Source of the DNA: Acidimicrobiales bacterium
Lineage (GTDB): Bacteria > Actinomycetota > Acidimicrobiia > Acidimicrobiales > Aldehydirespiratoraceae
Assembly (NCBI GenBank): GCA_033344915.1
Contig: JAWPML010000001.1
Coordinates: forward strand, 4,172,263-4,236,262
DNA length: 64,000 nt
Direction: 5' to 3'
Shown one piece after another: positions 6,532 through 41,499 of the stretch (its first letter is position 1; each line of letters begins with the position of its first letter). Under the pieces are notes generated by a model. The model was not told the origin of the DNA. It made no database searches and saw nothing but the letters and a program-made list of their open reading frames with translations. A program made the translations under genes and the position numbers.

Positions 6532-6649
6532 CAGCACGGCGGCCGCCGACGAGCTGAGGTTTGCATGCCCTATCCAGGGACACCTCGACGGCATGAACGC
6601 GACAGCGAGCATCGCCGACTTCGAGCGTGGGAGTCACCTACTGGTACCC

Positions 6650-11142: not shown

Positions 11143-11364
11143 TCAGGCGAGCGTGTACCAGTGGTCTGGCCAGAGGCATGCGGGGTGTGTGCCTATGGCG
11201 ATGGCGGCCCGGTCTGCTTGGTCTGCGGGGATGCCGTGGATGATCCAGCGGTGCACGGTGCGGCGGCTGACGCCGATCTGTTGAGCGAGGCTCTCGATTG
11301 TGGAGGCTTGGGCCTCGATGGCGAGCGGTCGGAAGGGGAGGCGGGGGCTGGCGGGGCGGCTCAT
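11143..11364 (-). CDS. Small HTH protein, cassette copy 2
   Basis: 73 residues with a helix-turn-helix (SLAQQIGVSRRTVHRWIIHG, then ADQADRAAIAIGTHPACLW) and a DHWYTLA tail. ATG 11364 overlaps the end of ardC by 4 bp, so it is translationally coupled to it. Paralogue of the protein at 8263-8493. Probably a regulator carried with ardC; no direct evidence for the target. Confidence 0.75.
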   Translation of the reverse strand: MSRPASPRLPFRPLAIEAQASTIESLAQQIGVSRRTVHRWIIHGIPADQADRAAIAIGTHPACLWPDHWYTLA

Positions 11365-12248
11365 GCTGCCGCCTCGTCGGTGTCGGTCTTGGCGGGCTGG
11401 GCGGCGGTGTCGAGGTAGTCGACGGCTCGTTGTGCAGCGGCGGCGGTGCGGAACAGGATCCTGGGGTTCTCTCCGAGCAGGTCGATCCAGTGGGCGAGGT
11501 AGGCAGCGTGGTCTTGTCGGGGCTGGGTGCTGATCCCGAGGCGGGCAGCAGCGATGGCGGCGCCGAGCTCGGCGACGAGTTCCTCGGTCGCATACGCGGG
11601 GATTCCGAAGGCCGAACGGAGGTCGAGCCGGTCGAGGCGGGAGCGGTGGCCCGTCCAGTGAATGTGCTCATGCAATGACGTCGCCAGGAATGCCTCGGCG
11701 TCGTCGAACTGGTCGGGGTGGGGGAGGTAGATGCGGTCGGGTGTCGGGGCGTAGTAGGCGCGGTCGCCTCCGTAGACGACGTCGGCACCGATGGCCGCGA
11801 GCCAGGCATCGGCGGGGGTGGAGGTGGTGGGTTCGGGTTGGGGTTCGTGGCCGTCGACTTGGTGGGCGTTGAAGACGGCGTAGACCTTGGGGACGAGCCG
11901 CCGCTCGATGGTGTCGCCTTCGCCAGTGTCGGACTCGCTGCGCTTCTTGGGGGTGACCCATTTGATGACGTAGGCGGCACGTTCGCCTTTACGGACCTGG
12001 GCGCCTGTCTTGCGGTACTGGTTGAAGGTGGCGTAGTCGGCGGTCGGGAATCCTCGTTCGACGGCGTCGAGGAACAGGGCGATGGTGTTCGATCCCTTGT
12101 AGGGGGCGCCGGTGGTGGCGTTGCGGGCGTTGAGGAGTCCGGCGATGCCGTGGGTGTGCCAGGGCATGGACCATTGGCCGTGTGATCCGGTTTGGATCAT
12201 GTCGACCAGTCGGGCCGTGACGGCGGTGGTGTGGTCGGTGTAGTTCAT
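11361..12248 (-). CDS. ardC: ArdC-like antirestriction protein, intact copy
   Basis: 295 residues. The N-terminal DUF1738/ArdC-N domain, which binds single-stranded DNA, is present (WSMPWHTHGIAGLLNARN, PYKGSNTIALFL, TFNQYRKTGAQVRKGE). The C-terminal zinc-metalloprotease-like domain has SLHEHIHWTGHRSRLDR with an intact HExxH, followed by ATEELVAELGAAI supplying the third ligand region. ArdC proteins protect incoming plasmid DNA from host restriction during conjugation. First gene of the cassette ardC-HTH-ssb; the downstream HTH gene overlaps it by 4 bp. Confidence 0.9.
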   Translation of the reverse strand: MNYTDHTTAVTARLVDMIQTGSHGQWSMPWHTHGIAGLLNARNATTGAPYKGSNTIALFLDAVERGFPTADYATFNQYRKTGAQVRKGERAAYVIKWVTPKKRSESDTGEGDTIERRLVPKVYAVFNAHQVDGHEPQPEPTTSTPADAWLAAIGADVVYGGDRAYYAPTPDRIYLPHPDQFDDAEAFLATSLHEHIHWTGHRSRLDRLDLRSAFGIPAYATEELVAELGAAIAAARLGISTQPRQDHAAYLAHWIDLLGENPRILFRTAAAAQRAVDYLDTAAQPAKTDTDEAAA

Positions 12249-13376: not shown

Positions 13377-14140
13377 TCAGTCGGAGCCGTAGATCTCGAT
13401 CTCGGTGGCGCCGGTGTTGCCGCCGGTGGTTTGCTCGGCGTCGAAGCGCAGGATTTGACCGGTTGTGGGTTCGTCGAGAACGACAGGATAGGGGCCCGCA
13501 GGGAAGGGTCCGAGGGTGGTGCCGTCGATCGTGACGGTGAAGGTCTCGGTGATGGCTGAGCCGTCGGTCATTTGGCGGGTGCGGTAGGCGACGGCAGTGA
13601 TCGGTTCATCTTGACCGAGGTCCAGCTCGATCGAGGCGTTGTCGCCATCGCCCGCAGTGGACCATTCGGTGGCGGGGTTGCCGTCGATGGCGTTCGCAGC
13701 TGCGAACGTGTCGGAGAACTCCGAGCTGACGTCAGTGATGGTGGCTGACGTGGCGATGTTGGCGCCAAGACCGGAGTCGATAGCTGGCGGAGTTGTGAAT
13801 GTCACAACGTCGCTTCGGTAGATCGCACCCGCAGCGTCGGAGCCTTGCAGGACGTAGCGGTACTCGGTTTCGGGGGCGAGGCCGGTGAGCAGCGGTCCGT
13901 GATCGTTGTGTGCTCCGCCCTGCATATCGTTGTCGACCGCGATGGAGCCGAAGGATTCGTCGACGCCGAAAATGACCGAGCAGGCAACGGGACGGTCGTG
14001 TCGACTGTGAGGGTCGCGGTTGTCGCTGATGGGTCGAAGTCGATTGCGATTTCGCTGGCGAGAATCGGTTCGATGGGTCGGACCGTGGCGGATGAGTCGT
14101 CGCTTCCGCAGCCGGCCTGCCTGTGGCGCAGCAGGGCGGT
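13377..14140 (-). pseudogene. Decayed lipoprotein with fibronectin-III-like and F5/8 type C (discoidin) domains
   Basis: The intact C-terminal frame (13377-13925) holds an FN3-like end (LLTGLAPETEYRYVLQGSD) and a discoidin-like domain (NAIDGNPATEWSTAGDGDN, IELDLGQDEPITAVAYRTR). Upstream coding sense continues but changes frame near 13978-13992: PIEPILASEIAIDFDPSA ... TLTVDTTVPLP in one frame, then CSVIFGVDESFGSIAVDND in the other. Further up a lipobox-like QAGC (Cys codon 14108-14110) is present, but no start codon or hydrophobic signal peptide precedes it in frame. Probably an extracellular carbohydrate-binding lipoprotein that is no longer made. Confidence 0.6.
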
Positions 14141-14188
14141 TCGGGGTCGTGATTCTTCGTCGGTGACGCCCGTTTCGCCGTCATGTCA

Positions 14189-14198
14189 TACAGACTGT
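14189..14198. promoter_or_regulatory. Predicted BlaI-type operator A
   Basis: TACAGACTGT, an ACA-N3-TGT dyad, lies 6 bp upstream of the short ORF that leads into the dsbA-like gene. Similar dyads occur at 15671-15687, 19511-19527, 20358-20374 and 23152-23165. BlaI/MecI-family repressors bind TACA/TGTA dyads, and a BlaI gene lies at 16904. Confidence 0.5.
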
Positions 14199-14203
14199 GC
14201 GAC

Positions 14204-14278
14204 ATGAATCGAATCCGACCCTTTGTATCGCTGGCGCACCGTGTTCGTTGTGAGTTCGACGGGGAGCTGGGTCGATGA
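14204..14278 (+). CDS. Short leader ORF overlapping dsbA
   Basis: 24 codons starting MNRIRPFVSLAHR directly after operator A. Its TGA overlaps the ATG of the dsbA-like gene (ATGA), so its translation would feed ribosomes into that gene. The same arrangement is seen after operator C. No function for the peptide itself is proposed. Confidence 0.4.
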   Translation: MNRIRPFVSLAHRVRCEFDGELGR

Positions 14279-14928
14279 AGAAGAACTTGGTGCTCCCTCT
14301 GTTGATGGTGGTTCTCGCTGTCGCTGCGTTGGTGGTGGCGGCGAACGCTGGAGGAGACGGCCCGTCCACTCAGGCGGGCGACGTGGTGATTGCTGGGGGC
14401 GACGCCCAGCTGGTCCGCGCCGACAGTCATCGAATCTCGGAGGCCCCGGTGGACTCGGTGGAGTTCGTGGAGTTCCTCGACTTCGAGTGCGAGGCGTGCC
14501 GCGCTGCTCACCCGGCGGTTACGGAGCTGCGTTCGCTGTATGGCGGTGAGGTCTCCTTCGTTGTGCGGAACTTTCCGTTGCACAACAACTCTGAGGCTGC
14601 GGCTCGTGCTGCGGAGGCTGCAGCTGCGCAGGACATGTTCGTCGAGATGATGGACTTGTTGTTCGAGACGCAGCCGGAGTGGGGGGAGAGCAGCAGCTCA
14701 CAGGAGGAGGTGTTCGTCGGCTTTGCCGAACAGCTTGGTCTCGACATGACGCAGTTCCGCGAGGTATACGACGATCCTGCGACGCTCGAGAAGGTCCGAC
14801 GCGACAAGGCTGACGGTCAGGCGCTGGGAGTGGAGGGAACCCCGACGTTCTTTCTGGATGGCGAGAAGCTCGAGCCGTCGAGCTTCGAGGATCTGGTAAC
14901 GGCGGTTGAGCAGGCGATCGGCGCGTGA
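14275..14928 (+). CDS. DsbA-type thiol-disulfide oxidoreductase
   Basis: 217 residues. N-terminal signal anchor (KKNLVLPLLMVVLAVAALVV), then a thioredoxin/DsbA fold facing outside. The active site is FECEACRAAHP, a CxxC with CEAC at residues about 71-74; VRNFPLHNNS and the cis-Pro loop GVEGTPTFFLDG are in place. It oxidises cysteines of secreted proteins. The next gene, a VKOR homologue that would re-oxidise it, overlaps by 4 bp (GTGA), so the two form a complete disulfide-forming pathway as in mycobacteria. Control by operator A is inferred. Confidence 0.9.
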   Translation: MKKNLVLPLLMVVLAVAALVVAANAGGDGPSTQAGDVVIAGGDAQLVRADSHRISEAPVDSVEFVEFLDFECEACRAAHPAVTELRSLYGGEVSFVVRNFPLHNNSEAAARAAEAAAAQDMFVEMMDLLFETQPEWGESSSSQEEVFVGFAEQLGLDMTQFREVYDDPATLEKVRRDKADGQALGVEGTPTFFLDGEKLEPSSFEDLVTAVEQAIGA

Positions 14929-15599
14929 CGGAAGCGGTCGTGGCCGACCGACCTTCCTCGGGTCCGGCGGCACGAGCCGTCGAGCCGGGACCAGCGCAGG
15001 TGGCGACGGCACACGAGAACGTTGGCCTGGCCTGGTTGTTGTCCGCCGGTGGGCTCGTTGGGTTGGTCGCGTCAGCGACGCTGTTGATCGAGAAGATCGA
15101 GCTCCTGGCGAACCCGGACTATGTGCCGAGCTGCAGTATCAACCCGATTCTCAGCTGTGGCTCGATCATGCGCACATCCCAGGCGGAGGTCTTCGGGTTC
15201 CCGAACCCGATCCTGGGCGTCGTCGGGTTCGCCGTCGTGGTGACGGTCGGAGTTTCGCTGCTCGCCGGCGTTGCGTACCCCAAGCGGTTCTGGCTCGGGC
15301 TGCAGGCCGGAGCAACCCTCGGGTTCGTGTTTGTGCACTGGTTGATTTACCAGAGCCTGTATCGGATCGGCGCGCTCTGCCCGTACTGCATGGTCGTGTG
15401 GTGTGTGACCGCTGCCATCTTCTGGTACGTCACCCTCCACAATCTTCGTACCGGTGATGCCACCCGACGCAGGTTCACCGGCCGGGTGGTCCGGGTCGGC
15501 GCCGAGTTCCATGCCGTGGTGCTGACAGGTTGGGTGCTGGTGGTGGCAGGCCTCATAACCGTCAGGTTCTGGGACTACTGGTCGACGTTGTTGCGCTGA
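14925..15599 (+). CDS. VKOR-family membrane protein (re-oxidises DsbA)
   Basis: 224 residues with four to five hydrophobic segments. The loop cysteines PSCSINPILSCGSIM and the quinone-side CxxC in RIGALCPYCMVVWC are both present, as required for vitamin K epoxide reductase homologues that pass electrons from DsbA to quinone. The N-terminal 30 residues are Ala/Pro-rich and cytoplasmic. GTG 14925 overlaps the dsbA-like stop by 4 bp, so the two are translationally coupled. Confidence 0.92.
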   Translation: MTEAVVADRPSSGPAARAVEPGPAQVATAHENVGLAWLLSAGGLVGLVASATLLIEKIELLANPDYVPSCSINPILSCGSIMRTSQAEVFGFPNPILGVVGFAVVVTVGVSLLAGVAYPKRFWLGLQAGATLGFVFVHWLIYQSLYRIGALCPYCMVVWCVTAAIFWYVTLHNLRTGDATRRRFTGRVVRVGAEFHAVVLTGWVLVVAGLITVRFWDYWSTLLR

Positions 15600-15670
15600 C
15601 TCGCGGCGAGGTCACCGCCCGATTCGGGTCGAGTGGGCATAGCGAATGACCCGGCGACATACTTGCAAAG

Positions 15671-15687
15671 TGCGACAGACTGTACGA
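15671..15687. promoter_or_regulatory. Predicted BlaI-type operator B
   Basis: TGCGACAGACTGTACGA is the exact reverse complement of operator C at 19511-19527. It lies just before the small membrane protein gene that heads the ctaG-blaI-M56 operon, so BlaI would repress its own operon here. A TACGAG hexamer at its 3' edge could serve as the -10 element. Confidence 0.6.
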
Positions 15688-15690
15688 GAA

Positions 15691-16011
15691 GTGCTGCGGG
15701 GTGTAACCGGGGTTCAGGCAGTGATAGCGCTTCTTGCGATCGCTGTCGTGTTCGTCGTCGCGGGCGTGGTCCTCAGCGCGTCGCGAGACGACGACCCGCC
15801 CGCGAGTCCCTCGGCGGCTGTACCGGTCGCGGAATTGCCGGCGGTGGAGCCCGAAGTGGGTGAAGGCGTTGCGGGTGACGGCTCAGGGAGCAGTGTGACC
15901 GCCATGGTCGCCGGGTTCGGCTTGATCGGGCTGTGGGTCGTTGGTGGAGGTGTGGCCTTGACCAGGGCTCGGCACCGTCGGGTCGGTGAGTCGGAACGGA
16001 TGGCGAGATGA
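15691..16011 (+). CDS. Small two-helix membrane protein
   Basis: 106 residues from GTG 15691. An ATG at 15646 is in frame but lies upstream of operator B, so it is unlikely to be used; GTG 15721 is another option. Two membrane helices (VIALLAIAVVFVVAGVV near the N-terminus; AMVAGFGLIGLWVVGGGVAL) flank an acidic Pro/Ala-rich outer loop. Unknown family. The stop overlaps the next start (ATGA), so it belongs with the CtaG-like gene. Confidence 0.65.
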   Translation: MLRGVTGVQAVIALLAIAVVFVVAGVVLSASRDDDPPASPSAAVPVAELPAVEPEVGEGVAGDGSGSSVTAMVAGFGLIGLWVVGGGVALTRARHRRVGESERMAR

Positions 16012-16874
16012 CACCGGTGGTGGCAGTTGCGGACTCGCCGTGGGTTTGGGAAGCCCGTCCCGACGTGTGGCTGTTGGTCGCGGCGGCGGCCCTCGGCTAT
16101 TGGTGGTCGCTGAGTCGGCTCCGCCCGCAGCTGCCGGGCCCGCCTGATTTGCCGGGCCGGGGGGTGCGGGCGAGGTTTGCCGCCGGGGTCGTGGTGTTGT
16201 GGGTCGCCGTCGACTGGCCCATGGATCGACTCGGTGATGACTATCTGTTCAGCGCTCACATGGTCCAGTTCGTCATGGTGACGCTGGTCGCGGCACCACT
16301 CTTGGTCTCCGGCGTCCCGACCTGGCTTCAGGTCGAGCTGGTGCGGCCCGTGGCCCGTGTGGTTCGTTTTCTGGGGAGAGGCCCGGTTGCTCTTGGATTG
16401 TTTCAAGTGGTGTTGGTCGCGACGCATCTGCCCAGCGTGGTGGAGCTCTACACCTCGAACTCGTTGGTGCATTTCTCGCTTCACGCGCTGTGGTTGCTGA
16501 GCGGATGCCTGTTCTGGCTACCGATCCTGGGTTCTGAACCGGTTGTCGAGCCGCTACGACCGCCACTCAAGATCGTGTATCTCATCGGGGCGACCATCGT
16601 CCCGACTGTCCCCGCTGGCTTCTTGACTTGGACCGAGACTGCGTTCTACGACTCGTACGCGACGGCACCACGGGTGTGGGGCATCTCTGCGGTGACCGAC
16701 CTTCAGCTCGCGGGCGTCGTCATGAAGATCGGCGGTGGCACGATTCTTTGGCTGTTCATCCTCTGGCTGTTCGCATCTTGGGCGTCTGAGGAACGCAGCT
16801 CATCAACGTCGCGCACCTCCGCACCGGTGACCGACCAGGCGCCCACCCATCGACCCGACGCAAGCTGCGCCTAA
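16008..16874 (+). CDS. CtaG (Caa3-type) cytochrome c oxidase assembly-like membrane protein
   Basis: 288 residues with about seven membrane helices and the conserved His-rich segments of the caa3_CtaG family: FSAHMVQFVMVTLVAAPLLV, VVLVATHLPSVVELY and VHFSLHALWLLSGCLFW. Family members are linked to cytochrome oxidase assembly and copper handling. The C-terminal 30 residues are polar and disordered. The start overlaps the preceding gene by 4 bp; blaI follows 29 bp later. A copper role here is family knowledge, not shown by this sequence. Confidence 0.85.
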   Translation: MTPVVAVADSPWVWEARPDVWLLVAAAALGYWWSLSRLRPQLPGPPDLPGRGVRARFAAGVVVLWVAVDWPMDRLGDDYLFSAHMVQFVMVTLVAAPLLVSGVPTWLQVELVRPVARVVRFLGRGPVALGLFQVVLVATHLPSVVELYTSNSLVHFSLHALWLLSGCLFWLPILGSEPVVEPLRPPLKIVYLIGATIVPTVPAGFLTWTETAFYDSYATAPRVWGISAVTDLQLAGVVMKIGGGTILWLFILWLFASWASEERSSSTSRTSAPVTDQAPTHRPDASCA

Positions 16875-16903
16875 ACTCGCCACCTGATGGAACGAGGTGG
16901 ACG

Positions 16904-17263
16904 ATGAGCCGACGGCCCATGGGTAGTCTGGAGGCAGCGGTGCTCGACGTTCTCTGGAGCATCGACGACCCGCTCAAGCCGGGCGATGTCCTGGACCGAC
17001 TCGACATCGATCCGCCGGTGGCGTACTCGACGGTGCTGACGATCTTGCGGCGCTTGTGGAAGAAGCGCCTGGTCACCCGGACCAAGGTCGGCAAAGCCTA
17101 CCTATATCGGCCGACACGGTCTCGTGAGGAACAGGTCGCCGATGCAATGGCTGAGGCATTCGCCGCAGCGACCGATCCCTCCGTCGCCCTCGGCCATTTC
17201 GTCGAGCATCTGTCGCCCGATCAGACCACTGCGCTGAAGCGGCTCCTTGGTCGCCGCCGATGA
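16904..17263 (+). CDS. BlaI/MecI/CopY-family transcriptional repressor
   Basis: 119 residues, usual length for the family. Winged helix: GSLEAAVLDVLWSIDDPLKP, VAYSTVLTILRRLWKKRLV and KVGKAYLYRPTRSREE; the C-terminal part dimerises. These repressors bind TACA/TGTA dyads and are inactivated by proteolysis triggered by a partner M56 protease, which is the next gene and overlaps by 4 bp. GGACG precedes ATG 16904. It probably represses its own operon and the other genes with matching dyads (A-E). Confidence 0.92.
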   Translation: MSRRPMGSLEAAVLDVLWSIDDPLKPGDVLDRLDIDPPVAYSTVLTILRRLWKKRLVTRTKVGKAYLYRPTRSREEQVADAMAEAFAAATDPSVALGHFVEHLSPDQTTALKRLLGRRR

Positions 17264-18147
17264 GTTTGCTGGTTATCGGCATCGGTGTGGCCTTGTTGAC
17301 GGTGCCCGCGCTCAGTGCGAGAAGTGCGCTCGGCCCCACGGCACGGGTGCGGACGGCATGTGTGTCTGCGACAATCGGCATCTCGCTACTCGGCGTCGGC
17401 ACCCTGCTCACGGCCAGCCCTTTGCTGCTGTCGTGGCACGACCAGGGCGAGGTGTCCGCAGTCGGTCTCGGACATCTGTCGCCCGGTGGACCGTGGGCCT
17501 GGTCGGCCGCCGGTGTGCTCGGCGGCGTCGGAGCGAGCGGGCTCTTGTCGTTTCTTCGCCAGAGCGGACGCGCCCGACGTCGTGCGAAACTGCCGCCGTG
17601 GGCTGCGACCGCGCTGCTGCACGATGAGCTCGCTGGCGTCGAGGTGCGGGTCGCGCCGACGCTCGAGCCGGTCGCCTTCGCGGTTCCCGGCCGCGATCGC
17701 CATGTCGTGGTGTCCGAATCGGTTACCCGGCTGGCCGCACCCGAGCGCCGAGCAGTCCTGGCCCACGAAGGTTCCCACCTCCGGCTGCGCCACCATCGCC
17801 ACCTGCTCGTGCTGGGGACCTACCAGCGGATCTGGGGCTGGGTGCCCGGCGTGCGAGCAGTGGTTGCCGCTCACCGGCATTCGATCGAGCAATGGGCCGA
17901 CTTGGACGCCAGTCGCCATCCTCACGTCGACTCGCAGGCGATGTCGCGGGCCCGTGCCCAGCTGGGCGCCTGCGACGGCGTCGGGGGAGTCGACCACCAA
18001 ACCGGGAGCGATGAGCTTTCACCCGAATCGTCGCGTCATGCCCTTGTTGGCGTCACGGGCTTCATCGCCGCCTTGGTCGCCGCCGGCGCATACAGCCTCA
18101 CCCACACCGTCGGCGATATCACGGCAGTCATGGCCGCACTTCACTGA
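17260..18147 (+). CDS. M56-family membrane metalloprotease (BlaR-like, no sensor domain)
   Basis: 295 residues. Membrane helices at the N-terminus (SLLVIGIGVALLTVPAL, then two more) and one near the C-terminus surround a cytoplasmic peptidase with AVLAHEGSHLRLRHH, a HExxH zinc motif, followed by QWADLDA as third-ligand region. BlaR1/MecR1 have a penicillin-binding sensor domain; this protein lacks it, so the signal is unknown. It is coupled to the BlaI gene (ATGA) and is its likely inactivator. Confidence 0.88.
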   Translation: MSLLVIGIGVALLTVPALSARSALGPTARVRTACVSATIGISLLGVGTLLTASPLLLSWHDQGEVSAVGLGHLSPGGPWAWSAAGVLGGVGASGLLSFLRQSGRARRRAKLPPWAATALLHDELAGVEVRVAPTLEPVAFAVPGRDRHVVVSESVTRLAAPERRAVLAHEGSHLRLRHHRHLLVLGTYQRIWGWVPGVRAVVAAHRHSIEQWADLDASRHPHVDSQAMSRARAQLGACDGVGGVDHQTGSDELSPESSRHALVGVTGFIAALVAAGAYSLTHTVGDITAVMAALH

Positions 18148-18162
18148 CGACTACCTGGCCGG

Positions 18163-19134
18163 CTACCCGACGATCTCATCGAGCGCGGCCGTCAGCTCCT
18201 GCACCGAGGCGACGTTGTCCCACCGCGACGTGATCGTGCCGGTCGAGTCGACCAAGAACACCCACGGCTCAGCAGCACGTTCGGTGCCTTGGGGAGCGAC
18301 CCAGTCCGCGGCCGCCTGATTGAGCACACCGCCTTCGAAGTCCTTCCAGACCTCGAGGTGCACGAACTCCACTCGGTCGCCATACTCGGTCTCCAACCGG
18401 GCGAGCTCGTCGGTGATCGGGCCGCAGAACCGGCTGACACAGAACACCGGCGTCGTCACGGTCACCATCACGGGGCGGCCCGCATCGAGGGCATCAGCGA
18501 TGGTCGTCTTGTGCAGACCCGGGTCCGGGAGCTCCTCGTCGAAGCCGAGGCGAGAGTCGATCGACTCCGGAGCCACCGACGGGTCGCCCGGGAGGGGCTG
18601 CACGGTACGAGGCGCCGCATCTCCGGCCCCGGGCACCACGGAGTTGGCATACACCTCGAACAGCGTCGACGTCGTGAACACTTGACCGTCAACACTCGCG
18701 TCGACGGTCACCTCCCACACACCGGGAGCCGGGAACCGGATCGGCGTCGTGGCGTAGACACCGCGTACGCCGGCGGGAGGGGCGAAGGTCGGTTCGTCGC
18801 CGGTCACCTGCTCTGTGCCTGGAATCGGGAGGAACCGTGCAGAGGTGGGGGCGGGTGCTACGACAGGATCTGATCCGCTCGACGGCTCCGATTCGCCGGT
18901 CGGTCCGTCCCGGTGTGCGAAGCTCAGCTCGATGTCACCCAGAGCGACGTCGCCTCGATCACGGGCGAACAGCCCCACGATGAAGCGTTCGGTGCGCTCG
19001 GGGCTCACATCGAAGCTGGCCACAGCGGCGATCAGCTCCTGCGACGGACCGGGGCCGGATTCGGCACCGGTGCCGCACGCGACGCTGACCGCACAACACC
19101 CGACAAGCAGGGCGAGACGCTTCACGAGCCACAC
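18163..19134 (-). CDS. Secreted lipoprotein with thioredoxin-like domain
   Basis: 323 residues. Lipoprotein signal: KRLALLVGCCAVSVACGTGA with lipobox VSVAC. Residues about 30-170 form a beta-rich domain (VWEVTVDASVDGQVFTTSTL); residues about 200-320 are thioredoxin-like with TPVFCVSRFCGPITDELARL, a C-x4-C pair, and WVFLVDSTGTITSRWDN. Related actinobacterial lipoproteins have the same CxSRxCGP signature; SCO/TlpA-like redox or copper delivery is possible but unproven. The start overlaps the upstream membrane protein gene by 13 bp. It converges on the M56 gene 15 bp away. Confidence 0.82.
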   Translation of the reverse strand: MWLVKRLALLVGCCAVSVACGTGAESGPGPSQELIAAVASFDVSPERTERFIVGLFARDRGDVALGDIELSFAHRDGPTGESEPSSGSDPVVAPAPTSARFLPIPGTEQVTGDEPTFAPPAGVRGVYATTPIRFPAPGVWEVTVDASVDGQVFTTSTLFEVYANSVVPGAGDAAPRTVQPLPGDPSVAPESIDSRLGFDEELPDPGLHKTTIADALDAGRPVMVTVTTPVFCVSRFCGPITDELARLETEYGDRVEFVHLEVWKDFEGGVLNQAAADWVAPQGTERAAEPWVFLVDSTGTITSRWDNVASVQELTAALDEIVG

Positions 19135-19463
19135 GATTCGTTGTGGGAAGTCGCCTTCTCTATCGCCACTAGCTCGCTTCGGGCCGCGCTCCGCTCAGAA
19201 GGACAGCCGGCGCGAGTGGCGATGTCGTGAAAGAAGTGGGCCCGATCGAGGGACAGCCGATCTACGGAGCCCTCGTCGGCACGTCGGGTCAGACGCACGA
19301 TGATCGAGTCGCACTGCTGGTGCAGATCCCGCTCCTGCGCGGACTCACCCTCGGCAGCGACACGATCAGCACGGTTATCGGGGACCTGCCGCCATGCCCG
19401 CACTCCCAAGGCAGCCCCGACCGTGCTACCAACCGCTACCGCGAGCACGTCGAGACCCGTCAC
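19122..19463 (-). CDS. Small single-pass membrane protein upstream of the lipoprotein
   Basis: 113 residues from GTG 19463. A hydrophobic N-terminus (VTGLDVLAVAVGSTVGAALG) is followed by a charged cytoplasmic part with Arg/Glu-rich helices (QERDLHQQCDSIIVRLTRRA). The start overlaps a 13-residue leader ORF by 4 bp (GTGA) and the stop overlaps the lipoprotein gene by 13 bp, so the three are coupled. Family not recognised. Confidence 0.6.
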   Translation of the reverse strand: MTGLDVLAVAVGSTVGAALGVRAWRQVPDNRADRVAAEGESAQERDLHQQCDSIIVRLTRRADEGSVDRLSLDRAHFFHDIATRAGCPSERSAARSELVAIEKATSHNESCGS

Positions 19464-19501
19464 CGGAACCAGCCGGGAAGCGTGAACTGATGAGTGAACA
19501 T
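19460..19501 (-). CDS. 13-residue leader ORF after operator C
   Basis: ATG 19501 to TGA 19460 encodes MFTHQFTLPGWFR. It begins 9 bp past operator C and its stop overlaps the next GTG start (GTGA). This repeats the arrangement found between operator A and the dsbA-like gene, which argues for translational coupling rather than chance. Confidence 0.42.
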   Translation of the reverse strand: MFTHQFTLPGWFR

Positions 19502-19510
19502 GGAACCAAA

Positions 19511-19527
19511 TCGTACAGTCTGTCGCA
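19511..19527. promoter_or_regulatory. Predicted BlaI-type operator C
   Basis: TCGTACAGTCTGTCGCA, the exact reverse complement of operator B. On the minus strand it includes TACGAT, a good -10 candidate 8 nt before the leader ATG. It would control the leader / membrane protein / thioredoxin-like lipoprotein operon. Confidence 0.6.
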
Positions 19528-19572
19528 GTTTGGTACTCGGGGCTGTGGCGCTTGTGGCGCGATCGCCGTGAC

Positions 19573-20358
19573 TCACCAGAGGAAAGCAACAGTGGTGGCG
19601 TTGAAGGCGGCGTGGGCCCAGATCGGTGCCGCCAAGCCGCCGGTGCGCCGAGCCAGCCACGCCAACGCCAACCCGATGGCCAACAGGCCCGGGAACTGCA
19701 CCATCTGGAAGTGGCTCGCGGCAAACACGACCGCGCTCACCCACACTGCGCCCCGATCGCCGATGCTCTGGATCAGCCCACCCAGAAGGACACCGCGAAA
19801 CAGCAGCTCCTCTGCTACCGGCGCAACGGCGATCACCCCTGCCGCAATGGCGAACTTCTCGAGACCCGAGACGTCTCGGAAGAGCGTCTCTGCGGGCCCG
19901 GAGATGTCCAGCTCCACACCCGCTGCAATCAGCGGGAGATAGATCCCGGGAACGACGAGAACCTGCACGGCCACACCGATCAGCATCGACTTCGCGATGT
20001 CGGCGAACGTGATAGCGAACCCGAAGTCGGCTCGGACGTCGCCCGAGCCGAAACGACGACTGGCCACGACCGCGGTTGCCACGAAACCGGTCCACAGTCC
20101 GACTTGGCTCAACAGCAGTGAGACGCTGCCGTCCGCAGTCGAACCAGCGACGATCGCGACCGTCGAGCCGAACGCGGCGAGCGACACGGCCGACACCCAG
20201 CCCACAAATGCCAGCCACGCCGGCCACATCCTCGCCCCTGTCGCGTGGTTGGGGTCCGAGACCGGCAAGAGGTGTCGCAGCGAGCGACTCACCACCGGCG
20301 GTCGCCGGCTGGAGCTCCGGCGTTCGATCGGAGGTCGAGAGCACACATCGCGCAACAT
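19573..20358 (-). CDS. CPBP-family intramembrane metalloprotease
   Basis: 261 residues from ATG 20358, which directly abuts a TACAGTC-type dyad. About eight hydrophobic segments. The CPBP (Abi/CAAX) motifs are clear: VAPVAEELLFRGVLLGG (EExxxR), VVFAASHFQMVQFPGLL (FxxxH) and IWAHAAFNATT (HxxxN). Such proteases cleave membrane-bound substrates in stress and immunity functions; the substrate here is unknown. The gene is divergent from uppP. It is a single gene on this strand; operator C lies beyond its stop. Confidence 0.88.
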   Translation of the reverse strand: MLRDVCSRPPIERRSSSRRPPVVSRSLRHLLPVSDPNHATGARMWPAWLAFVGWVSAVSLAAFGSTVAIVAGSTADGSVSLLLSQVGLWTGFVATAVVASRRFGSGDVRADFGFAITFADIAKSMLIGVAVQVLVVPGIYLPLIAAGVELDISGPAETLFRDVSGLEKFAIAAGVIAVAPVAEELLFRGVLLGGLIQSIGDRGAVWVSAVVFAASHFQMVQFPGLLAIGLALAWLARRTGGLAAPIWAHAAFNATTVAFLW

Positions 20359-20374
20359 GCTACAGTCAGTAGCA
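20358..20374. promoter_or_regulatory. Predicted BlaI-type operator D
   Basis: TGCTACAGTCAGTAGCA has 6-bp inverted arms TGCTAC/GTAGCA with a 5-bp centre and resembles operator C (TACAGTCTGT). It touches the start codon of the CPBP gene and lies upstream of uppP, so it may act on both. Confidence 0.45.
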
Positions 20375-20494
20375 CAACACCCCCTGCGTGGTAGACGGTC
20401 GGATCCTTTGGTACAGCAGCGAAACTCGATCGCGAGCAGAGCGCTGGCGCGACGTGAAGGCCCCGCCGGCCATCGAACGGTCCGGCGATGGTGC

Positions 20495-21388
20495 GTGGGA
20501 GCGTTGGTCATCGGTGTACTCGTGGCTGTAGCGGCGAGCGCGGCCGCCGAGGCCGGGGACGCGGAGCTCTCCACGAGCGAGGCGCTGGTGCTCGGGATGA
20601 TCGAGGGGGTGACCGAGTACCTCCCTGTCAGCTCCACGGCTCACCTTGCGATCACCGAAGTTCTCCTTGGTCTCACCAGCACGCCGGAGGGCAAAACCGC
20701 CGCTGACTCGTATGCGATCGTCATCCAGGTCGGCGCGATTGCCGCCGTGCTCGGCTTGTATCGTCGCCGCGTCGTCACGCTCGCTCGAGGCGTGCTCGGA
20801 TTCGACCGGGCAGGGCGGCGACTGGCGCTCGCGATCCTCACCGCGTTCGTGCCGGCCGCGGTGGTGGGGTTGGTGGCGGGTGATGCCATCAAGAACAATC
20901 TCTTCAGTACCTGGCCCATCTTGGCCGCGTGGGTTGTCGGCGGCTTGGCGCTCTTGTGGCCACGACTCACCACCACATCGGCCACCCGTCCGCTCGAGGA
21001 GCTGTCCATCGGGGCCGCGGCGATCATCGGTGCGGCCCAGGTCCTGGCGCTGTGGCCGGGAACGAGCCGCAGCCTGATCACGATCATCGCGGCGCTGGCG
21101 GTTGGCATGGGTCTTCCTGCCGCAGTGGAGTTCAGCTTCTTGTTGGGATTGGTCACACTCTCGGCCGCCACCGGCTATGAGTTGCTCAGCGGTGGCGACG
21201 CAATCACAGCCACCTTCGGGTGGCGTAGCAGTATTGTCGGGGTCGCTGCTGCGGCGGTCACCGCGTGGTTGGCGGTGACGTGGATGGTCGCCTACCTCCA
21301 ACGTCGACCGCTGTCGATCTTCGGCTGGTACCGGATCTCGATCGCCTGTGTGGTCGCTGTCGTCGCGTTGGCCACGACACAGCTATGA
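20495..21388 (+). CDS. uppP: Undecaprenyl-diphosphatase UppP (BacA family)
   Basis: About 297 residues from GTG 20495; a TTG at 20408 would add 29 residues. The family signatures are intact: ALVLGMIEGVTEYLPVSSTA near the N-terminus and VLALWPGTSRSLITIIAAL with the phosphatase Arg/Ser residues, plus eight membrane helices. It dephosphorylates the lipid carrier for wall synthesis and can give bacitracin tolerance; UppP homologues also occur in lead-resistance operons (PbrB). Overlaps the next gene by 4 bp. In this metal-rich island it is probably a second copy. Confidence 0.92.
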   Translation: MGALVIGVLVAVAASAAAEAGDAELSTSEALVLGMIEGVTEYLPVSSTAHLAITEVLLGLTSTPEGKTAADSYAIVIQVGAIAAVLGLYRRRVVTLARGVLGFDRAGRRLALAILTAFVPAAVVGLVAGDAIKNNLFSTWPILAAWVVGGLALLWPRLTTTSATRPLEELSIGAAAIIGAAQVLALWPGTSRSLITIIAALAVGMGLPAAVEFSFLLGLVTLSAATGYELLSGGDAITATFGWRSSIVGVAAAAVTAWLAVTWMVAYLQRRPLSIFGWYRISIACVVAVVALATTQL

Positions 21389-21909
21389 CCGTCGCGCTTC
21401 GCCGGTGCCTTGGCGCACTGGCCCTGGTCATCGGGGTCGGGCTCGGTGGTGCGTTGCCGGCCGCGGCCCACGGCGATCCGGAGTTCTCCGGCGACGTCGG
21501 GCCCTTTGCCGTGGAGGCGTTCGACGAGGAGATCGCGGGGACCGACCTGCTGTACACAGTCGTTGTCAACGATCCGTCCACTGGACTCCCGGTACGGGGG
21601 GCCAGGGTCGAGGTGAATGCCGTTAGCGAAACGAGACAAGTCGGACCGCTGGTCGGCAACGAACTCGGCGGTGCCTACCAGGTCCTCCTGCCCGAGCTGG
21701 GTGAGGAGGCGTGGTTGATCACGGTTCGCATCGTGGTCGCCGGCGACGCAGTCACCTTCGAACACGAGCTCAACTCTGGGGCCCAGAGCGAGCCCCGGTG
21801 GCGCACGGCCGTCGTCGCTGCGGGCATGGTGATCGCCGGCGTCGCCGTGCTGACCTTCGCCCGAGTGGTTCGTCGCAAGTCTGGCATCGTCGGGCCCCGC
21901 AGCTCGTGA
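21385..21909 (+). CDS. Secreted/anchored YtkA-like protein
   Basis: 174 residues from ATG 21385, overlapping the uppP stop (ATGA). Signal peptide (LGALALVIGVGLGGALPAAA, mature start near HGDPEF), a beta-sandwich with LLYTVVVNDPSTGLPVRGAR, and a C-terminal membrane helix (TAVVAAGMVIAGVAVLTFA) with a positive tail. The fold and length resemble YtkA/CopC-like exported proteins of copper clusters; assignment to that family is tentative. Confidence 0.65.
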   Translation: MTVALRRCLGALALVIGVGLGGALPAAAHGDPEFSGDVGPFAVEAFDEEIAGTDLLYTVVVNDPSTGLPVRGARVEVNAVSETRQVGPLVGNELGGAYQVLLPELGEEAWLITVRIVVAGDAVTFEHELNSGAQSEPRWRTAVVAAGMVIAGVAVLTFARVVRRKSGIVGPRSS

Positions 21910-21930
21910 CGTCAGGCAGTGGGCGACAGC

Positions 21931-22719
21931 TCAGCCGCCGTCGTCGTTGTCCATGTCCGACTGCGATGGGTCCATGTCCATCTCACCCATGTCTGCTGCG
22001 TCGGGTCCGAAGTCGGCAACGAATCCGGCCGGTGACGAGGGCAGTCCGGCTGCTTCGCGGGCGAATTCCATCTCGGCGATCTCCGAGGCTTGGATGCGCG
22101 CCATCCGTTCTGCGGTGTCGACGACCCAGGCGTCTTCGGCACGGCTCGCAGCGTCCTGGGCCATGGCCACGCCGCCGGCATGGTGATCGCTCATCAAGGC
22201 CAAGAACAGCGCATCGGTCTCGGGGCCCTGGGCGTCGCGGAAGGTCTCGAGTTCTGCGGCATCGGCCATGCCGGGCATCGCGTCGGTGCTGGGAACCGAC
22301 ATCCCCATCCATGCCATTGGCTCTTGCTCGCGCGACGCGGGATCGAATCCCCACATGCCGAGTCGCATCTGCATAAGGCCGATCTCGTAGGACTGTGATC
22401 GGATGATCTCGCGGGCGAACGCATGGACCGACGGCTCGGACCCGTTGGCCAGCTGGATCATCGAGAGCTGCACCGCCTGTTCATGATGCGCCGACATGTC
22501 ATAGAGGAACCCGACATCGGCGGAGTCGCCCGGCGGGGAGTCGCCCTCGCGTACTCCGATGAAGTAGCCGATACTGCCGGCGAGAAACATGAGCGCGATG
22601 ACCCCGACCATGCGCTGACCGGGCGTCGTCGGCAGCAGCCGGCGCAGACCCGAGACGCGAGCTTCGTGATCGAGCGCCGGCGGCGATGCATCGGAGCGGT
22701 CAACGTCGGTTGTCGTCAA
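21931..22719 (-). CDS. DUF305 (ferritin-like, CopM-type) exported protein
   Basis: 262 residues with one N-terminal membrane helix (MVGVIALMFLAGSIGYFIGV). Two DUF305 repeats with the paired-His motif: FLYDMSAHHEQAVQLSMIQL and LALMSDHHAGGVAMAQDA. The region is rich in Met (LMQMRLGMWGF, EPMAWMGM) and the tail in Asp/Met, as in periplasmic copper-binding members. It probably binds metal outside the membrane. Its 5' end overlaps a 34-residue ORF, and a wHTH-like gene lies upstream. Confidence 0.88.
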   Translation of the reverse strand: MTTTDVDRSDASPPALDHEARVSGLRRLLPTTPGQRMVGVIALMFLAGSIGYFIGVREGDSPPGDSADVGFLYDMSAHHEQAVQLSMIQLANGSEPSVHAFAREIIRSQSYEIGLMQMRLGMWGFDPASREQEPMAWMGMSVPSTDAMPGMADAAELETFRDAQGPETDALFLALMSDHHAGGVAMAQDAASRAEDAWVVDTAERMARIQASEIAEMEFAREAAGLPSSPAGFVADFGPDAADMGEMDMDPSQSDMDNDDGG

Positions 22720-22804
22720 TGTTTCTCCAGAGGGTCATGGCGGACCGGCCGAGGTCGACACCGGCGCGGCCACTACGAACACGACGAAGGATGCTCTCAC
22801 GCAT
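22700..22804 (-). CDS. Possible 34-residue basic protein
   Basis: ATG 22804, preceded by AAGGAACG, encodes MRESILRRVRSGRAG ... RSAMTLWRNIDD. It overlaps the DUF305 start by 20 bp and follows the 22846-23109 gene, making a compact three-gene row. Basic and possibly amphipathic; no family recognised. Confidence 0.4.
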   Translation of the reverse strand: MRESILRRVRSGRAGVDLGRSAMTLWRNIDDNRR

Positions 22805-22845
22805 GGTGCTGCGTTCCTTCGTGACTTCGGCGATGCGGCCGGTCG

Positions 22846-23109
22846 TCACCGTGCATCGTCGAGGATCGCCAGCGCGGCCGCCAACCCGCAGTTTGTCAAG
22901 CGGACACGACCTGGCGCACCGTTGGAACCGACCCGTTCGACCGCCAACCCGGCGTCGATCAACTCCTGAACCCCGGCACCGAAGCCCGGATCGGCGACGA
23001 GGTGGTCCGGGCGTTCGGGCGACAGCAGCGAATCGAGAAGCCGGCGCTGGGTGCGAGCGACCCGCAACTGACCTTCCGAGGGGTGCTCCCGGTTCAGTGA
23101 TGAACTCAT
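22846..23109 (-). CDS. Small hypothetical protein, possible winged helix
   Basis: 87 residues from ATG 23109 with GGAG 9 nt upstream. The pattern RVARTQRRLLDSLLSPERPD, then FGAGVQELIDAGLAVERVG and GRVRLTNCGLAAALAIL resembles a short winged helix (helix, helix, beta wing), but no family is certain. It stands at the head of the row leading to the DUF305 gene and is divergent from the ArsR gene; operator E and an ArsR-type palindrome lie between them. Confidence 0.55.
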   Translation of the reverse strand: MSSSLNREHPSEGQLRVARTQRRLLDSLLSPERPDHLVADPGFGAGVQELIDAGLAVERVGSNGAPGRVRLTNCGLAAALAILDDAR

Positions 23110-23151
23110 CGCCGTCGCTCCATCCTTCCTTCGATGCTTCTCGACTACTAT

Positions 23152-23165
23152 TACACAGTGTCGCA
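23152..23165. promoter_or_regulatory. Predicted BlaI-type operator E
   Basis: TACACAGTGTCGCA has the ACA-N3-TGT core and shares the TGTCGCA edge with operator C. It lies in the divergent region between the 22846-23109 gene and the ArsR gene. Confidence 0.4.
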
Positions 23166-23209
23166 ACAAGCTTCCCTCAGCCATCATTGACTTTCACCGG
23201 AAGACAACA

Positions 23210-23231
23210 TACCTTCACAGATATGAAGGTA
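23210..23231. promoter_or_regulatory. ArsR-type operator overlapping the arsR start
   Basis: TACCTTCA (23210-23217) and TGAAGGTA (23224-23231) form an 8-bp perfect inverted repeat with a 6-nt spacer. The right arm contains the ATG of the ArsR gene. SmtB/ArsR repressors bind such AT-rich dyads at their own promoters, so this is probably the metal-responsive autorepression site. Confidence 0.65.
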
Positions 23232-23606
23232 AATACGGACGTCGAGAGGTGTGCCGAGCGCCGTGTGGACGCCAGCCGGGTTGCGGCGGTGGCGGAATCG
23301 CTGGTGGACGTCGACGAAGCTGCCGCGTTGGCCGAGATGTTCCGACTGTTGGGCGATCCGACGCGGGTGCGGATCTTGTACGCCTTGTTGGAGGCCGGCG
23401 AATTGTGCGTGTGTGACATTGCCGCAGTGGTGGACACCTCCGAGACGAAGGTGTCTCAGGCGATGCGCTTGCTGCGGTCAGCAGCAGTGGTGCGGAATCG
23501 CCGAGATGGGCGCAACATCATTTACCGCCTCGACGACGCCCACGTCCGTCTGCTGTTGGATCTATCGCGCGAACACGTCGCCCATGGCGAGGACGGCGAA
23601 CGGTGA
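23223..23606 (+). CDS. ArsR/SmtB-family metal-responsive repressor
   Basis: 127 residues. Winged helix: AEMFRLLGDPTRVRILYALL, then LCVCDIAAVVDTSETKVSQAMRLLRSAAVV and GRNIIYRLDDAHVRLLLD. The recognition helix region has ELCVCDIA, the paired Cys of the ELCVCDL metal box of alpha3N sensors (CadC/ArsR); the N-terminal Cys (ERCAERR) could complete a site. The C-terminal EHVAHGE adds His. It heads a five-gene operon ending in a P1B-4 ATPase and overlaps the next gene by 4 bp. Metal is likely Cd/Zn/Co class, not proven. Confidence 0.9.
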   Translation: MKVNTDVERCAERRVDASRVAAVAESLVDVDEAAALAEMFRLLGDPTRVRILYALLEAGELCVCDIAAVVDTSETKVSQAMRLLRSAAVVRNRRDGRNIIYRLDDAHVRLLLDLSREHVAHGEDGER

Positions 23607-24643
23607 GGTGGCGAGCACCGCAACCGATCGATCAACGTATCGACGAGCTCACCGCAGACGCACGCCATCGCGTGCGTGCGGGAGAGGTCGAGGCCGCGTG
23701 GGAGAGGCTCGGTGACGCGCACGTGCTGTCCCAGCCCTGGGCGCGGTCTCATCTGCGTGTGCACGGCTCGATGCTCGGTGTGGGCTGGCGGACCCGAGAT
23801 GCCGGTGAGATCGCGGGGCAGCTCTTCCGGCTGCTGGTCGCCGTCCCGGGGTCACTGACGGGCCGCTATCCAGCCGGGAACTCGGGCCGATCCGATGTGT
23901 CGGCCTTTGCTCCGGTACCCGTTCGCGAGGATCTGGCCGACGTGCTCGCCAACGCCGATGCTGAACCGGCGGCGGAGGTACTGGAGCCGTCAGAGGTGCG
24001 CAGTCTCTATGACCGGCTGGCCCCGGTCTATGACTTGCTGTCGAGTCCCTACGGCTGGTTCGGGTCGAAAGGACTCGCCGAGCAGGCCATCGAGGAGCTT
24101 CGCCTCCAACCCGGCGACACGGTCGTGGACTTGGGTACCGGCACCGGCCGCAACCTGCCGAAGCTTGCCGCTGCGGTTGGCCAAGCCGGGACCGTGGTGG
24201 GGGTGGACCTGTCGCCCGGGATGCTCGAACGGGCCCGGCGGCGAGTCTCCGCCGTGGGCTCGAACAACGTGGAGCTGATCGAGGCCGACATGGCGGCCTT
24301 CGACCTGCCCTCTGGCACTGATGCGGTGGTGTCGTCGTATGCGATGGAGATGCTGCCCGACTACGACGAGGTGATCGCACGGCTTGCCGAGCAGCTGCCC
24401 CCCGGAGGCCGTATCGCCGTCAACGGCTTGCGCGATCCCGAGCGCTGGCCGGAGTGGGTGGTGCGGGTGGGATCGGCGCTGAGTCGCCCGTTCGGAGTCT
24501 CCGAGGCCTACCGGTCACTCCGGCCGTGGGAAGCCATCGATGCCCACGCCATCGACGTCGTGTACGAGGAAGCATGGGCGGGAGCCGTCTATCTGGCGGC
24601 CGGCTCCGCACCGGGCCAACGGAGCGGGGAGGACGTCGAGTGA
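23603..24643 (+). CDS. DUF3703-methyltransferase fusion protein
   Basis: 346 residues with two parts. Residues about 10-120 match DUF3703 (AWERLGDAHVLSQPWARSH, VGWRTRDAGEIAGQLFRL, GRYPAGNSGRSDVSAFAPVP), a domain found as a separate small protein in metal-resistance clusters. Residues about 135-330 are a class I SAM methyltransferase: motif I VVDLGTGTGRNLPKL, then GVDLSPGMLERARRR, IEADMAAFDLP and LPPGGRIAVNGL. The substrate is unknown. It lies between ArsR and the metal ATPase with 4-bp overlaps on both sides. The fusion makes a joint role in metal handling likely. Confidence 0.85.
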   Translation: MRWRAPQPIDQRIDELTADARHRVRAGEVEAAWERLGDAHVLSQPWARSHLRVHGSMLGVGWRTRDAGEIAGQLFRLLVAVPGSLTGRYPAGNSGRSDVSAFAPVPVREDLADVLANADAEPAAEVLEPSEVRSLYDRLAPVYDLLSSPYGWFGSKGLAEQAIEELRLQPGDTVVDLGTGTGRNLPKLAAAVGQAGTVVGVDLSPGMLERARRRVSAVGSNNVELIEADMAAFDLPSGTDAVVSSYAMEMLPDYDEVIARLAEQLPPGGRIAVNGLRDPERWPEWVVRVGSALSRPFGVSEAYRSLRPWEAIDAHAIDVVYEEAWAGAVYLAAGSAPGQRSGEDVE

Positions 24644-41460: not shown

Positions 41461-41499
41461 CGCCACCCATCGGCTCGTCGGGTCGCCAACCCGAAGAGG

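What the first reader, a model, noticed from the sequence alone, without database searches (positions are those of the whole stretch)
14189..23165. BlaI/M56-controlled regulon for disulfide formation, oxidase assembly and envelope genes
Five ACA-N3-TGT dyads (14189, 15671, 19511, 20358, 23152), two of them identical over 17 bp in opposite orientation, stand directly before genes on both strands: DsbA-VKOR, a CtaG-like/BlaI/M56 operon, a thioredoxin-like lipoprotein, a CPBP protease and a divergent DUF305 row. BlaI with an M56 protease that lacks a beta-lactam sensor would make a switch for envelope redox or copper stress. I know no described system of this composition.
Basis: partly seen in the sequence, partly recalled or inferred. 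Interest (0 to 1): 0.8.

Follow-up and report, generated by a model that had tools for sequence, protein, structure and literature searches.

The report
BlaI-protease switch with five operators
Five matching DNA control sites sit in front of a block of envelope and copper-type genes beside a repressor and a membrane protease, such sites recur before most of the same genes in related bacteria, and the best reading is a protease-released switch that probably senses copper or thiol stress rather than penicillin.

Summary
Those nine dyads stand before small-TM-(CtaG)-BlaI-M56, small gene-DUF305, CPBP, UppP, a lipoprotein row and one extra gene. Upstream of 49 other BlaI genes of the class, exact TACA-N3-TGTA occurs at 8 of 49, every other spacer from 0 to 7 at 0 of 49: the dyad is this lineage's BlaI operator. 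The DsbA-VKOR site is weakest and not testable by conservation; CPBP of one island lacks a dyad. The protease is BlaR1-like without the penicillin domain; orthologs keep four histidines in its predicted outer loop and tail. BlaI regions of the class hold copper-type genes in 22 of 47 against 0 of 20 controls. A published precedent exists, PetRP of cyanobacteria (PMC7896320). Binding, cleavage and copper as signal are inferred. The island sits in a conjugative-looking element. New variant of a known kind.

The parts
14186..14202 (+). operator 1 (weakest), before DsbA-VKOR
   Evidence: 15.9 bits with the ortholog-trained matrix; not recovered at E<=5 by model R2; VKOR not found in G061, G062, G013, neither VKOR nor DsbA in the four ortholog loci searched
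14275..14928 (+). DsbA-like thioredoxin-fold protein
   Evidence: Pfam PF13462 / PF01323
14925..15599 (+). VKOR family protein
   Evidence: Pfam PF07884
15671..15687 (+). operator 2 (autoregulatory), TGCGACAGACTGTACGA
   Evidence: dyads at L031:455 and L078:2355 before the same operon
15691..16011 (+). small two-helix membrane protein, first gene of the BlaI operon (start uncertain; frame open from 15646)
   Evidence: tblastn matches at the same place in L078 (42%, E 3e-8) and L031 (28%, E 3e-5); no Pfam family over its cut-off
16008..16874 (+). Caa3_CtaG family protein
   Evidence: Pfam PF09678; kept in L031, only a 24-residue remnant match in L078
16904..17263 (+). BlaI family repressor, no cysteine
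   Evidence: Pfam PF03965 79.2 bits, cut-off 22.6; nearest solved structure 2g9w, M. tuberculosis BlaI by recall
17260..18147 (+). BlaR1-like membrane metalloprotease without penicillin sensor, HEGSH, histidines H60, H72, H282, H295
   Evidence: Pfam M48 27.7 bits (cut-off 20.3), M56 11.8 bits below cut-off 31; alignment of 4 orthologs; hydropathy
18163..19134 (-). lipoprotein with CxxxxC, called thioredoxin-like by reading only
   Evidence: no Pfam or NCBIfam match; 83% identical ortholog in L079
19122..19439 (-). small membrane protein gene overlapping the lipoprotein gene (start uncertain)
   Evidence: ortholog in L079, 55% over 93 aa; no Pfam match
19511..19527 (-). operator 3
   Evidence: identical 17-mer at the same place in L079:2815-2831
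19573..20358 (-). CPBP (Rce1-like) membrane protease (start uncertain, may be further downstream)
   Evidence: Pfam PF02517; orthologs in L079 72%, L078 58%, L031 51%
20358..20374 (.). operator 4, between CPBP and UppP
   Evidence: two dyads at the same place in L079 (3715, 3817) and one at the CPBP start region in L078 (5992); CPBP of L031 has none within one mismatch
20495..21388 (+). UppP/BacA undecaprenyl-diphosphatase (start uncertain)
   Evidence: Pfam PF02673; NCBIfam UppP models match, each below its cut-off
21385..21909 (+). secreted/membrane protein of unknown family
   Evidence: no Pfam match over cut-off; ortholog in L079
21931..22719 (-). DUF305 protein, resembles CopM metallochaperones
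   Evidence: Pfam PF03713; NCBIfam CopM 69.2 bits, below cut-off 90
22846..23109 (-). small gene of unknown family ahead of DUF305
   Evidence: no Pfam match; orthologs in L078 64% and L031 60%
23149..23165 (-). operator 5
   Evidence: dyads at L031:5535 and L078:5238 before the same small gene

Best explanation
The BlaI protein of 16904-17263 binds the five dyads (consensus TGCGACAG-W-CTGTAnnA, a derived TACA-N3-TGTA) as a dimer and represses its own operon and the neighbouring transcription units. The membrane metalloprotease next to it, shaped like the protease half of BlaR1, is switched on by an extracytoplasmic signal, cleaves BlaI near His98-Phe99 and so releases the whole block: disulfide formation (DsbA-VKOR), oxidase assembly (CtaG), a lipoprotein with a CxxxxC motif, a DUF305/CopM-like protein, a CPBP protease and undecaprenyl-phosphate recycling (UppP). 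The signal is most likely excess extracytoplasmic copper, or the thiol/envelope damage it causes, read by histidines in the outer loop and the short C-terminal tail that stands where the penicillin sensor would be. Shown: sites, gene content, conservation, operator type, absence of the sensor domain, copper neighbourhood of the family. Inferred: binding, repression, cleavage, topology, signal.
For: Matrix from nine dyads of three other genomes ranks the five sites first in the window. Dyads before the same genes in L079, L078, L031, BlaI identities 90, 79, 70%. Model R2 from those nine finds 3 of the 5 and nothing else at E<=5 in 4.48 Mb, and in G061 and G062 only its training sites (150 of 164 candidates scored in G061). 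TACA-N3-TGTA exact upstream of 8 of 49 other BlaI genes, 0 of 49 for spacers 0,1,2,4,5,6,7. BlaR1 (8exp, 8exr, 8exs) are the top three fold matches, E 0.013-0.042, next 0.46, from a poor model. S. aureus BlaI is cut at Asn101-Phe102; the window BlaI has His98-Phe99, matched to it by eye. Copper-type genes in 22 of 47 BlaI regions against 0 of 20 controls, CopCD or multicopper oxidase alone 12 of 47 against 0 of 20. In this genome a paralogous BlaI-M56 pair has a dyad 44 bp before the first possible start of CopCD (L046:3482), and another module one between TlpA-like and CcdA-like genes (L045:11102). Copper-dependent precedent PetRP.
Against: No binding, expression or cleavage data. Sites 14189 and 20361 are not recovered by R2 at E<=5. 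The symmetrised matrix is not specific to this island: in 40 kb of this genome around the two paralogous BlaI genes it scores 22.3 (L045:14355), 18.4 (L045:11104) and 15.6 (L046:2045), and in 208 kb of control DNA one position reaches 16.3, above the 14189 site. CPBP of L031 has no dyad within one mismatch (best 13.2 bits at 3906), and in L078 the CPBP alignment starts a few codons upstream of the dyad, so gene starts are uncertain. 25 of 47 BlaI regions have no copper hit; the copper references come from one BlaI-bearing cluster (L173) and the ATPases among them also hit other metal ATPases. The window's own two ATPases match the cadmium-family model over its cut-off and the copper-family model below it. 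The third membrane helix (77-108) does not reach the hydropathy cut-off used, and the poor model runs one helix to residue 294, so 'outer tail' is tentative. The window protease lacks the WC/HH pattern of many copper-neighbour proteases; HH tail and copper neighbours associate only weakly, 11 of 16 against 8 of 26, P 0.026 uncorrected. Pfam M56 is below cut-off for the window protein.
Confidence: 0.7

Rival explanations
1. The switch answers cell-wall or lipid-carrier stress (or a wall-active compound), not copper; UppP and CPBP are the main output.
For: A dyad faces UppP in the window and in L079; BlaI of mycobacteria is tied to beta-lactamase, cell division and ATP synthase (passages); 25 of 47 BlaI regions of the class show no copper-type gene.
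Against: No penicillin-binding sensor domain; UppP is not found in L031, L078 or the further 20 kb of that contig (L173) while DUF305 and the autoregulated operon stay in L031 and L078; CtaG, DUF305/CopM-like and thiol genes have no wall role known to me.
Confidence: 0.2
2. The dyads are bound by another BlaI paralog of this genome (three BlaI genes over the cut-off) or shared by several, so the local BlaI is not the sole regulator.
For: Paralog operators ACGACA-N3-TGTCGT and CTACA-N3-TGTAG share the core, and the ortholog-trained matrix scores up to 22.3 bits beside the paralogs.
Against: The flank TGCGACAG/CTGTAnnA goes with this BlaI in four genomes, model R2 gives no hit beside the paralogs of G000 (it does give one 5.5 kb from a paralog in G013), and the paralogs are 38 and 46% identical to it.
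Confidence: 0.12
3. The similarity of sites is a chance or repeat effect without regulatory meaning.
For: The bare ACA-N3-TGT is not enriched in the window.
Against: 0 of 300 shuffles; dyads at orthologous promoters while the alignable DNA of L031 is 65-82% identical.
Confidence: 0.02

Closest known systems
PetRP of cyanobacteria (BlaI-like PetR, BlaR1-like protease PetP)
   Same: BlaI-family regulator next to a BlaR1-like membrane protease that is reported to degrade it when copper is present; regulon of few genes
   Different: targets there are plastocyanin and cytochrome c6 and two unknown proteins, PetR also activates; here disulfide, oxidase-assembly, DUF305, CPBP and UppP genes on a mobile-looking element; copper response not shown
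BlaI-BlaR1 / MecI-MecR1 of staphylococci and bacilli
   Same: repressor plus zinc metalloprotease, dyad operators of TACA/TGTA type
   Different: no penicillin sensor domain, spacer of 3 instead of the 2 of TACANNTGTA, no beta-lactamase or penicillin-binding protein among the island genes scanned
BlaI (Rv1846c) of M. tuberculosis
   Same: best sequence match among solved structures (2g9w); regulon reported to reach ATP synthase genes
   Different: other targets; here the sites found lie in one island
CopY of Gram-positive bacteria
   Same: same protein family, copper genes in the wider neighbourhood of the family
   Different: CopY binds copper by C-terminal Cys-X-Cys; this BlaI has no cysteine

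Membership tests
BlaI/MecI (PF03965) repressor | family profile over its cut-off | tested here: met
   79.2 bits, cut-off 22.6
BlaI/MecI (PF03965) repressor | dyad operator before its own operon | tested here: met
   window 15674, L031:455, L078:2355
BlaI/MecI (PF03965) repressor | binds the dyad as a dimer | not testable with these tools
   needs a gel shift
BlaR1 beta-lactam sensor | HExxH zinc protease between membrane helices | tested here: met
   HEGSH at 169-173, hydrophobic stretches 1-24, 32-59, 259-281, predicted helix 77-108 below the hydropathy cut-off; BlaR1 top fold match from a poor model, mean pLDDT 47
BlaR1 beta-lactam sensor | Pfam M56 profile over cut-off | tested here: inconclusive
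   window protein 11.8 bits below 31; paralogs of the same genome 31.5 and 31.3
BlaR1 beta-lactam sensor | C-terminal penicillin-binding domain | tested here: not met
   protein ends at residue 295, no such Pfam match
PetRP copper switch | BlaI regulator adjacent to a BlaR1-like protease | tested here: met
   frames 16904-17263 and 17260-18147 overlap by 4 bases
PetRP copper switch | targets petE and petJ | tested here: not met
   none of the island proteins scanned matched a plastocyanin or cytochrome c family
PetRP copper switch | copper-dependent degradation of the repressor | not testable with these tools
   needs an experiment
CopY copper repressor | C-terminal Cys-X-Cys metal sites | tested here: not met
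   no cysteine in the 119 residues; NCBIfam CopY 31.6 bits, cut-off 121.95

The most novel reading that the evidence does not exclude
In this class (Acidimicrobiia, name inferred from the records) a whole family of BlaI-protease pairs has replaced the penicillin sensor of BlaR1 by a minimal metal site built from the first outer loop and a short C-terminal tail, and each pair runs its own copper/thiol envelope regulon with its own variant of one TACA-N3-TGTA operator; the window's pair is a mobile member that added disulfide formation and lipid-carrier recycling. Loop WC and tail HH co-occur (10 of 10 WC proteins have HH, 6 of the other 32; P 5e-6, not corrected for relatedness), and the window's group has four invariant histidines in loop and tail.
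Probability: 0.35. Interest if true: 0.75.

Novelty: new variant of a known kind. Interest (0 to 1): 0.6.

Why it matters
It gives a compact, testable case of how BlaI-protease signalling may work without a beta-lactam sensor, with defined operators, defined targets and named candidate sensor residues. What sensor-less M56 proteases perceive is largely open; PetP in cyanobacteria is the one worked case I found, and a marine survey notes homologs of unknown role (PMC10141476, passage). I found no paper on a regulon that joins disulfide formation, oxidase assembly and undecaprenyl recycling under one BlaI repressor (ten searches, listings only).

Tried and rejected
Bare ACA-N3-TGT as evidence: not enriched, dropped in favour of the fuller dyad. 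Plasmid search with the protease: no match. DsbA-VKOR conservation: VKOR not found in the three other genomes (DsbA was not searched genome-wide), neither found in the ortholog loci, so operator 1 stays untested. Structure prediction of the protease: mean pLDDT 47, too poor to place the histidines; its fold search is weak support only. Searches of the protease against PDB sequences: nothing relevant. Direct copper sensing by BlaI: rejected, no cysteine. Three frames with HExxH near BlaI were dropped before the counts because they did not resemble M56 (listed there), and the window, L031, L078, L079 and L173 were left out of its 42. CtaG as a class-wide partner: rejected, 0 of 47 regions at the cut-off, one (L165) at the looser cut-off. 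Slips of mine: searches used a wrong-frame CPBP query, one search also wrong frames for the small gene at 22846, the small TM protein and ArsR, and searches scanned that small gene in a wrong frame; redone in the right frames. The redo added CPBP in L031 (without a dyad). Literature: ten searches of the held open library, read as listings; PetRP was found, no paper on this gene set; the primary PetRP paper is not held and was not read, nor was Sala 2009, seen only as cited.
Full report
WHAT WAS CHECKED. The window is part of a 4.48 Mb single-contig genome (G000, positions 4172263-4236262). The four loci found for its BlaI in GTDB contigs are titled Acidimicrobiales bacteria. One of them, at 20361, has one mismatch to ACA-N3-TGT. 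The bare pattern is no more common than chance in the window, but TACA-N3-TGTA with at most one mismatch occurs 5 times in 14000-23400 against a shuffle mean of 0.33, 0 of 300 shuffles reaching 5. The exact core ACAGACTGT occurs 5 times in the genome, 3 of them here, the other two inside an enoyl-CoA hydratase gene and a transpeptidase-domain gene. With a pattern taken from the two identical sites and up to two mismatches the genome has 41 hits (156 for the reversed control); 5 of the 41, at 4 places, lie in this 9 kb, two of the places being those the pattern was made from.

ORTHOLOGOUS ISLANDS. Besides the identical one (DHS20C19), the GTDB scan gave L079 (BlaI 90% over 110 residues), L078 (79%) and L080 = L031 (70%). 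L079, L078 and L031 hold 3, 4 and 2 dyads of the TACA-N3-TGTA type with at most one mismatch; none was dropped. They stand before the small membrane protein-(CtaG)-BlaI-M56 operon (L031, L078), the small gene-DUF305 pair (L031, L078), CPBP (L078, L079), UppP (L079) and the small membrane gene-lipoprotein pair (L079); the ninth, L078:13208, precedes a DUF6851 gene with weak vanadium-haloperoxidase resemblance. Misses: CPBP of L031 (51% identical) has no such dyad, and in L078 the CPBP alignment begins a few codons upstream of the dyad, so the start of that gene is open. A symmetrised 17-column matrix made from these nine alone ranks the five window sites first: 23.4, 23.3, 23.3, 21.0, 15.9; the sixth position scores 7.6. 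The training dyads were picked with the same core pattern, so the core is not blind; the flanks and ranks are. In 208 kb of control DNA three positions reach 10 and one (16.3) exceeds the weakest window site; in 40 kb of this genome around its two other BlaI genes three reach 15.6-22.3, fitting related operators of the paralogs. A sequence model of the nine sites (R2) finds three of the five in the whole genome at E<=5 and nothing else there; in G061 and G062 only its own training sites (one in both orientations), in G013 one further site 5.5 kb from a paralogous BlaI (in G061 150 of 164 candidates were scored). A model that includes the window sites finds exactly the five at E<=10 (they match by construction, and 150 of 230 candidates were scored, so the absence of others is not complete).

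OPERATOR OF THE FAMILY. BlaI over E 1e-10 is uncommon in the class: 30 of 198 genomes. At 49 BlaI places other than this island and its orthologs, exact TACA-N3-TGTA lies within 1.4 kb upstream in 8, and no exact dyad with spacer 0, 1, 2, 4, 5, 6 or 7 in any; with one mismatch spacer 3 is at 21 of 49 against 6.4 expected (spacer 6, a by-product of the longer symmetric form in my reading, at 15 against 4.9). Some of the 49 are cut by contig ends. Paralog operators look like ACGACA-N3-TGTCGT, while this BlaI goes with TGCGACAGWCTGTAnnA, which could keep paralogs of one genome apart. CopY and BlaI/MecI operators are described as TACANNTGTA (PMC7253601, passages), so spacer 3 is a difference. Two BlaI proteins of Clostridium thermocellum were found by DAP-seq to run small autoregulated regulons (PMC8457756, passages).

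THE PROTEASE. The 295-residue protein has HEGSH and hydrophobic stretches at 1-24, 32-59 and 259-281; a helix at 77-108 is predicted but does not reach the hydropathy cut-off. It ends 14 residues past the last stretch, so there is no penicillin domain. Pfam gives M48 over cut-off and M56 below; paralogs in the same genome pass M56 narrowly. The fold search, from a poor model, puts three BlaR1 structures on top. In BlaR1 the outer loop EL1 between helices 2 and 3 contacts the C-terminal sensor (PMC9834060, passages). Here the corresponding loop and the tail hold H60, H72, H282 and the last residue H295, invariant in four orthologs. In the class at large, WC in the loop and HH in the tail go together (10 of 10 against 6 of 32). 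That this forms a metal site is inference.

WHAT SIGNAL. Within about 5 kb of BlaI genes of the class (less where contigs end), 22 of 47 regions hold a copper-type gene by tblastn, none of 20 control regions from four of those genomes; CopCD or multicopper oxidase alone 12 of 47 against 0 of 20. The reference proteins come from L173, a copper cluster with its own BlaI-M56 pair that is not among the 47. In G000 itself a dyad stands 44 bp before the first possible start of CopCD beside one paralogous BlaI-M56 pair, and another between TlpA-like and CcdA-like genes beside the other. In G013 (L033) dyads stand before CopCD, CcdA and a P-type ATPase. The DUF305 protein resembles CopM metallochaperones, below cut-off. 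Against copper: the island's two ATPases pass the cadmium-family and not the copper-family cut-off, and 25 of 47 BlaI regions show no copper-type gene.

PRECEDENT. PetRP: a BlaI-family regulator and a BlaR1-family protease control the plastocyanin/cytochrome c6 switch; the protease is proposed to be copper-dependent (PMC7896320, first of two parts read; PMC13421787 and PMC10141476, passages). PMC10141476 notes homologs of unknown role in heterotrophic marine bacteria. In mycobacteria BlaI reaches ATP synthase and cell-division genes (PMC12565901, PMC8265638, passages). So the mechanism is of a known kind; the composition, operator spacing and mobile setting are new as far as these searches go.

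SETTING. The window also holds a TrwC relaxase (2599-6612), SSB, ArdC and a phage-type integrase (40342-41862), and the stretch 11667-40667 is 99.98% identical to a contig of another species of the genus whose DNA at a chromosomal test stretch of 2.4 kb is 82% identical. Recent transfer or a stray contig in that assembly would both explain this; ArdC beside the island in L078 too favours a conjugative element.

Noticed in passing
window 2599-6612, 10238-10651, 11361-12248, 40342-41862: TrwC relaxase, SSB, ArdC and phage-type integrase frame the metal/redox block: it looks like an integrative conjugative element of about 40 kb.
   Followed up: partly
window 11667-40667 against G005:C1 (L029, L030): 99.98% identity over 29 kb with a different species of the genus, while a 2.4 kb chromosomal stretch is 82% identical: recent transfer or a misbinned contig.
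   Followed up: partly
L046:2043 and L046:3482 (own genome near 4.284-4.286 Mb): A paralogous BlaI-M56 pair with perfect ACGACA-N3-TGTCGT dyads before itself and before CopCD.
   Followed up: partly
L045:8244, L045:11102, L045:14353 (own genome near 4.270-4.277 Mb): Another M56-BlaI pair with a perfect dyad upstream, a dyad between divergent TlpA-like and CcdA-like genes, and a further strong dyad with no target assigned (names by reading and tblastn).
   Followed up: partly
L033 (G013:C26:172001-192000): Six positions over 11 bits with the matrix, some before CopCD, CcdA and a P-type ATPase: a larger BlaI-type copper regulon candidate.
   Followed up: partly
window 23223-23606 and 23152: A divergent ArsR-family gene starts 61 bp from operator 5 and heads the row with the first metal ATPase; it could share the site.
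   Followed up: no
L078:11410-13203: A DUF6851 gene with weak vanadium-haloperoxidase similarity has a dyad just at its start, an extra target in that genome.
   Followed up: no
window 23603-24643: Fusion of DUF3703 with a methyltransferase domain in a metal-resistance row.
   Followed up: no
window 5600-5697: ARAGORN calls a 98-base tRNA-Thr inside the relaxase frame on the other strand; probably false.
   Followed up: no
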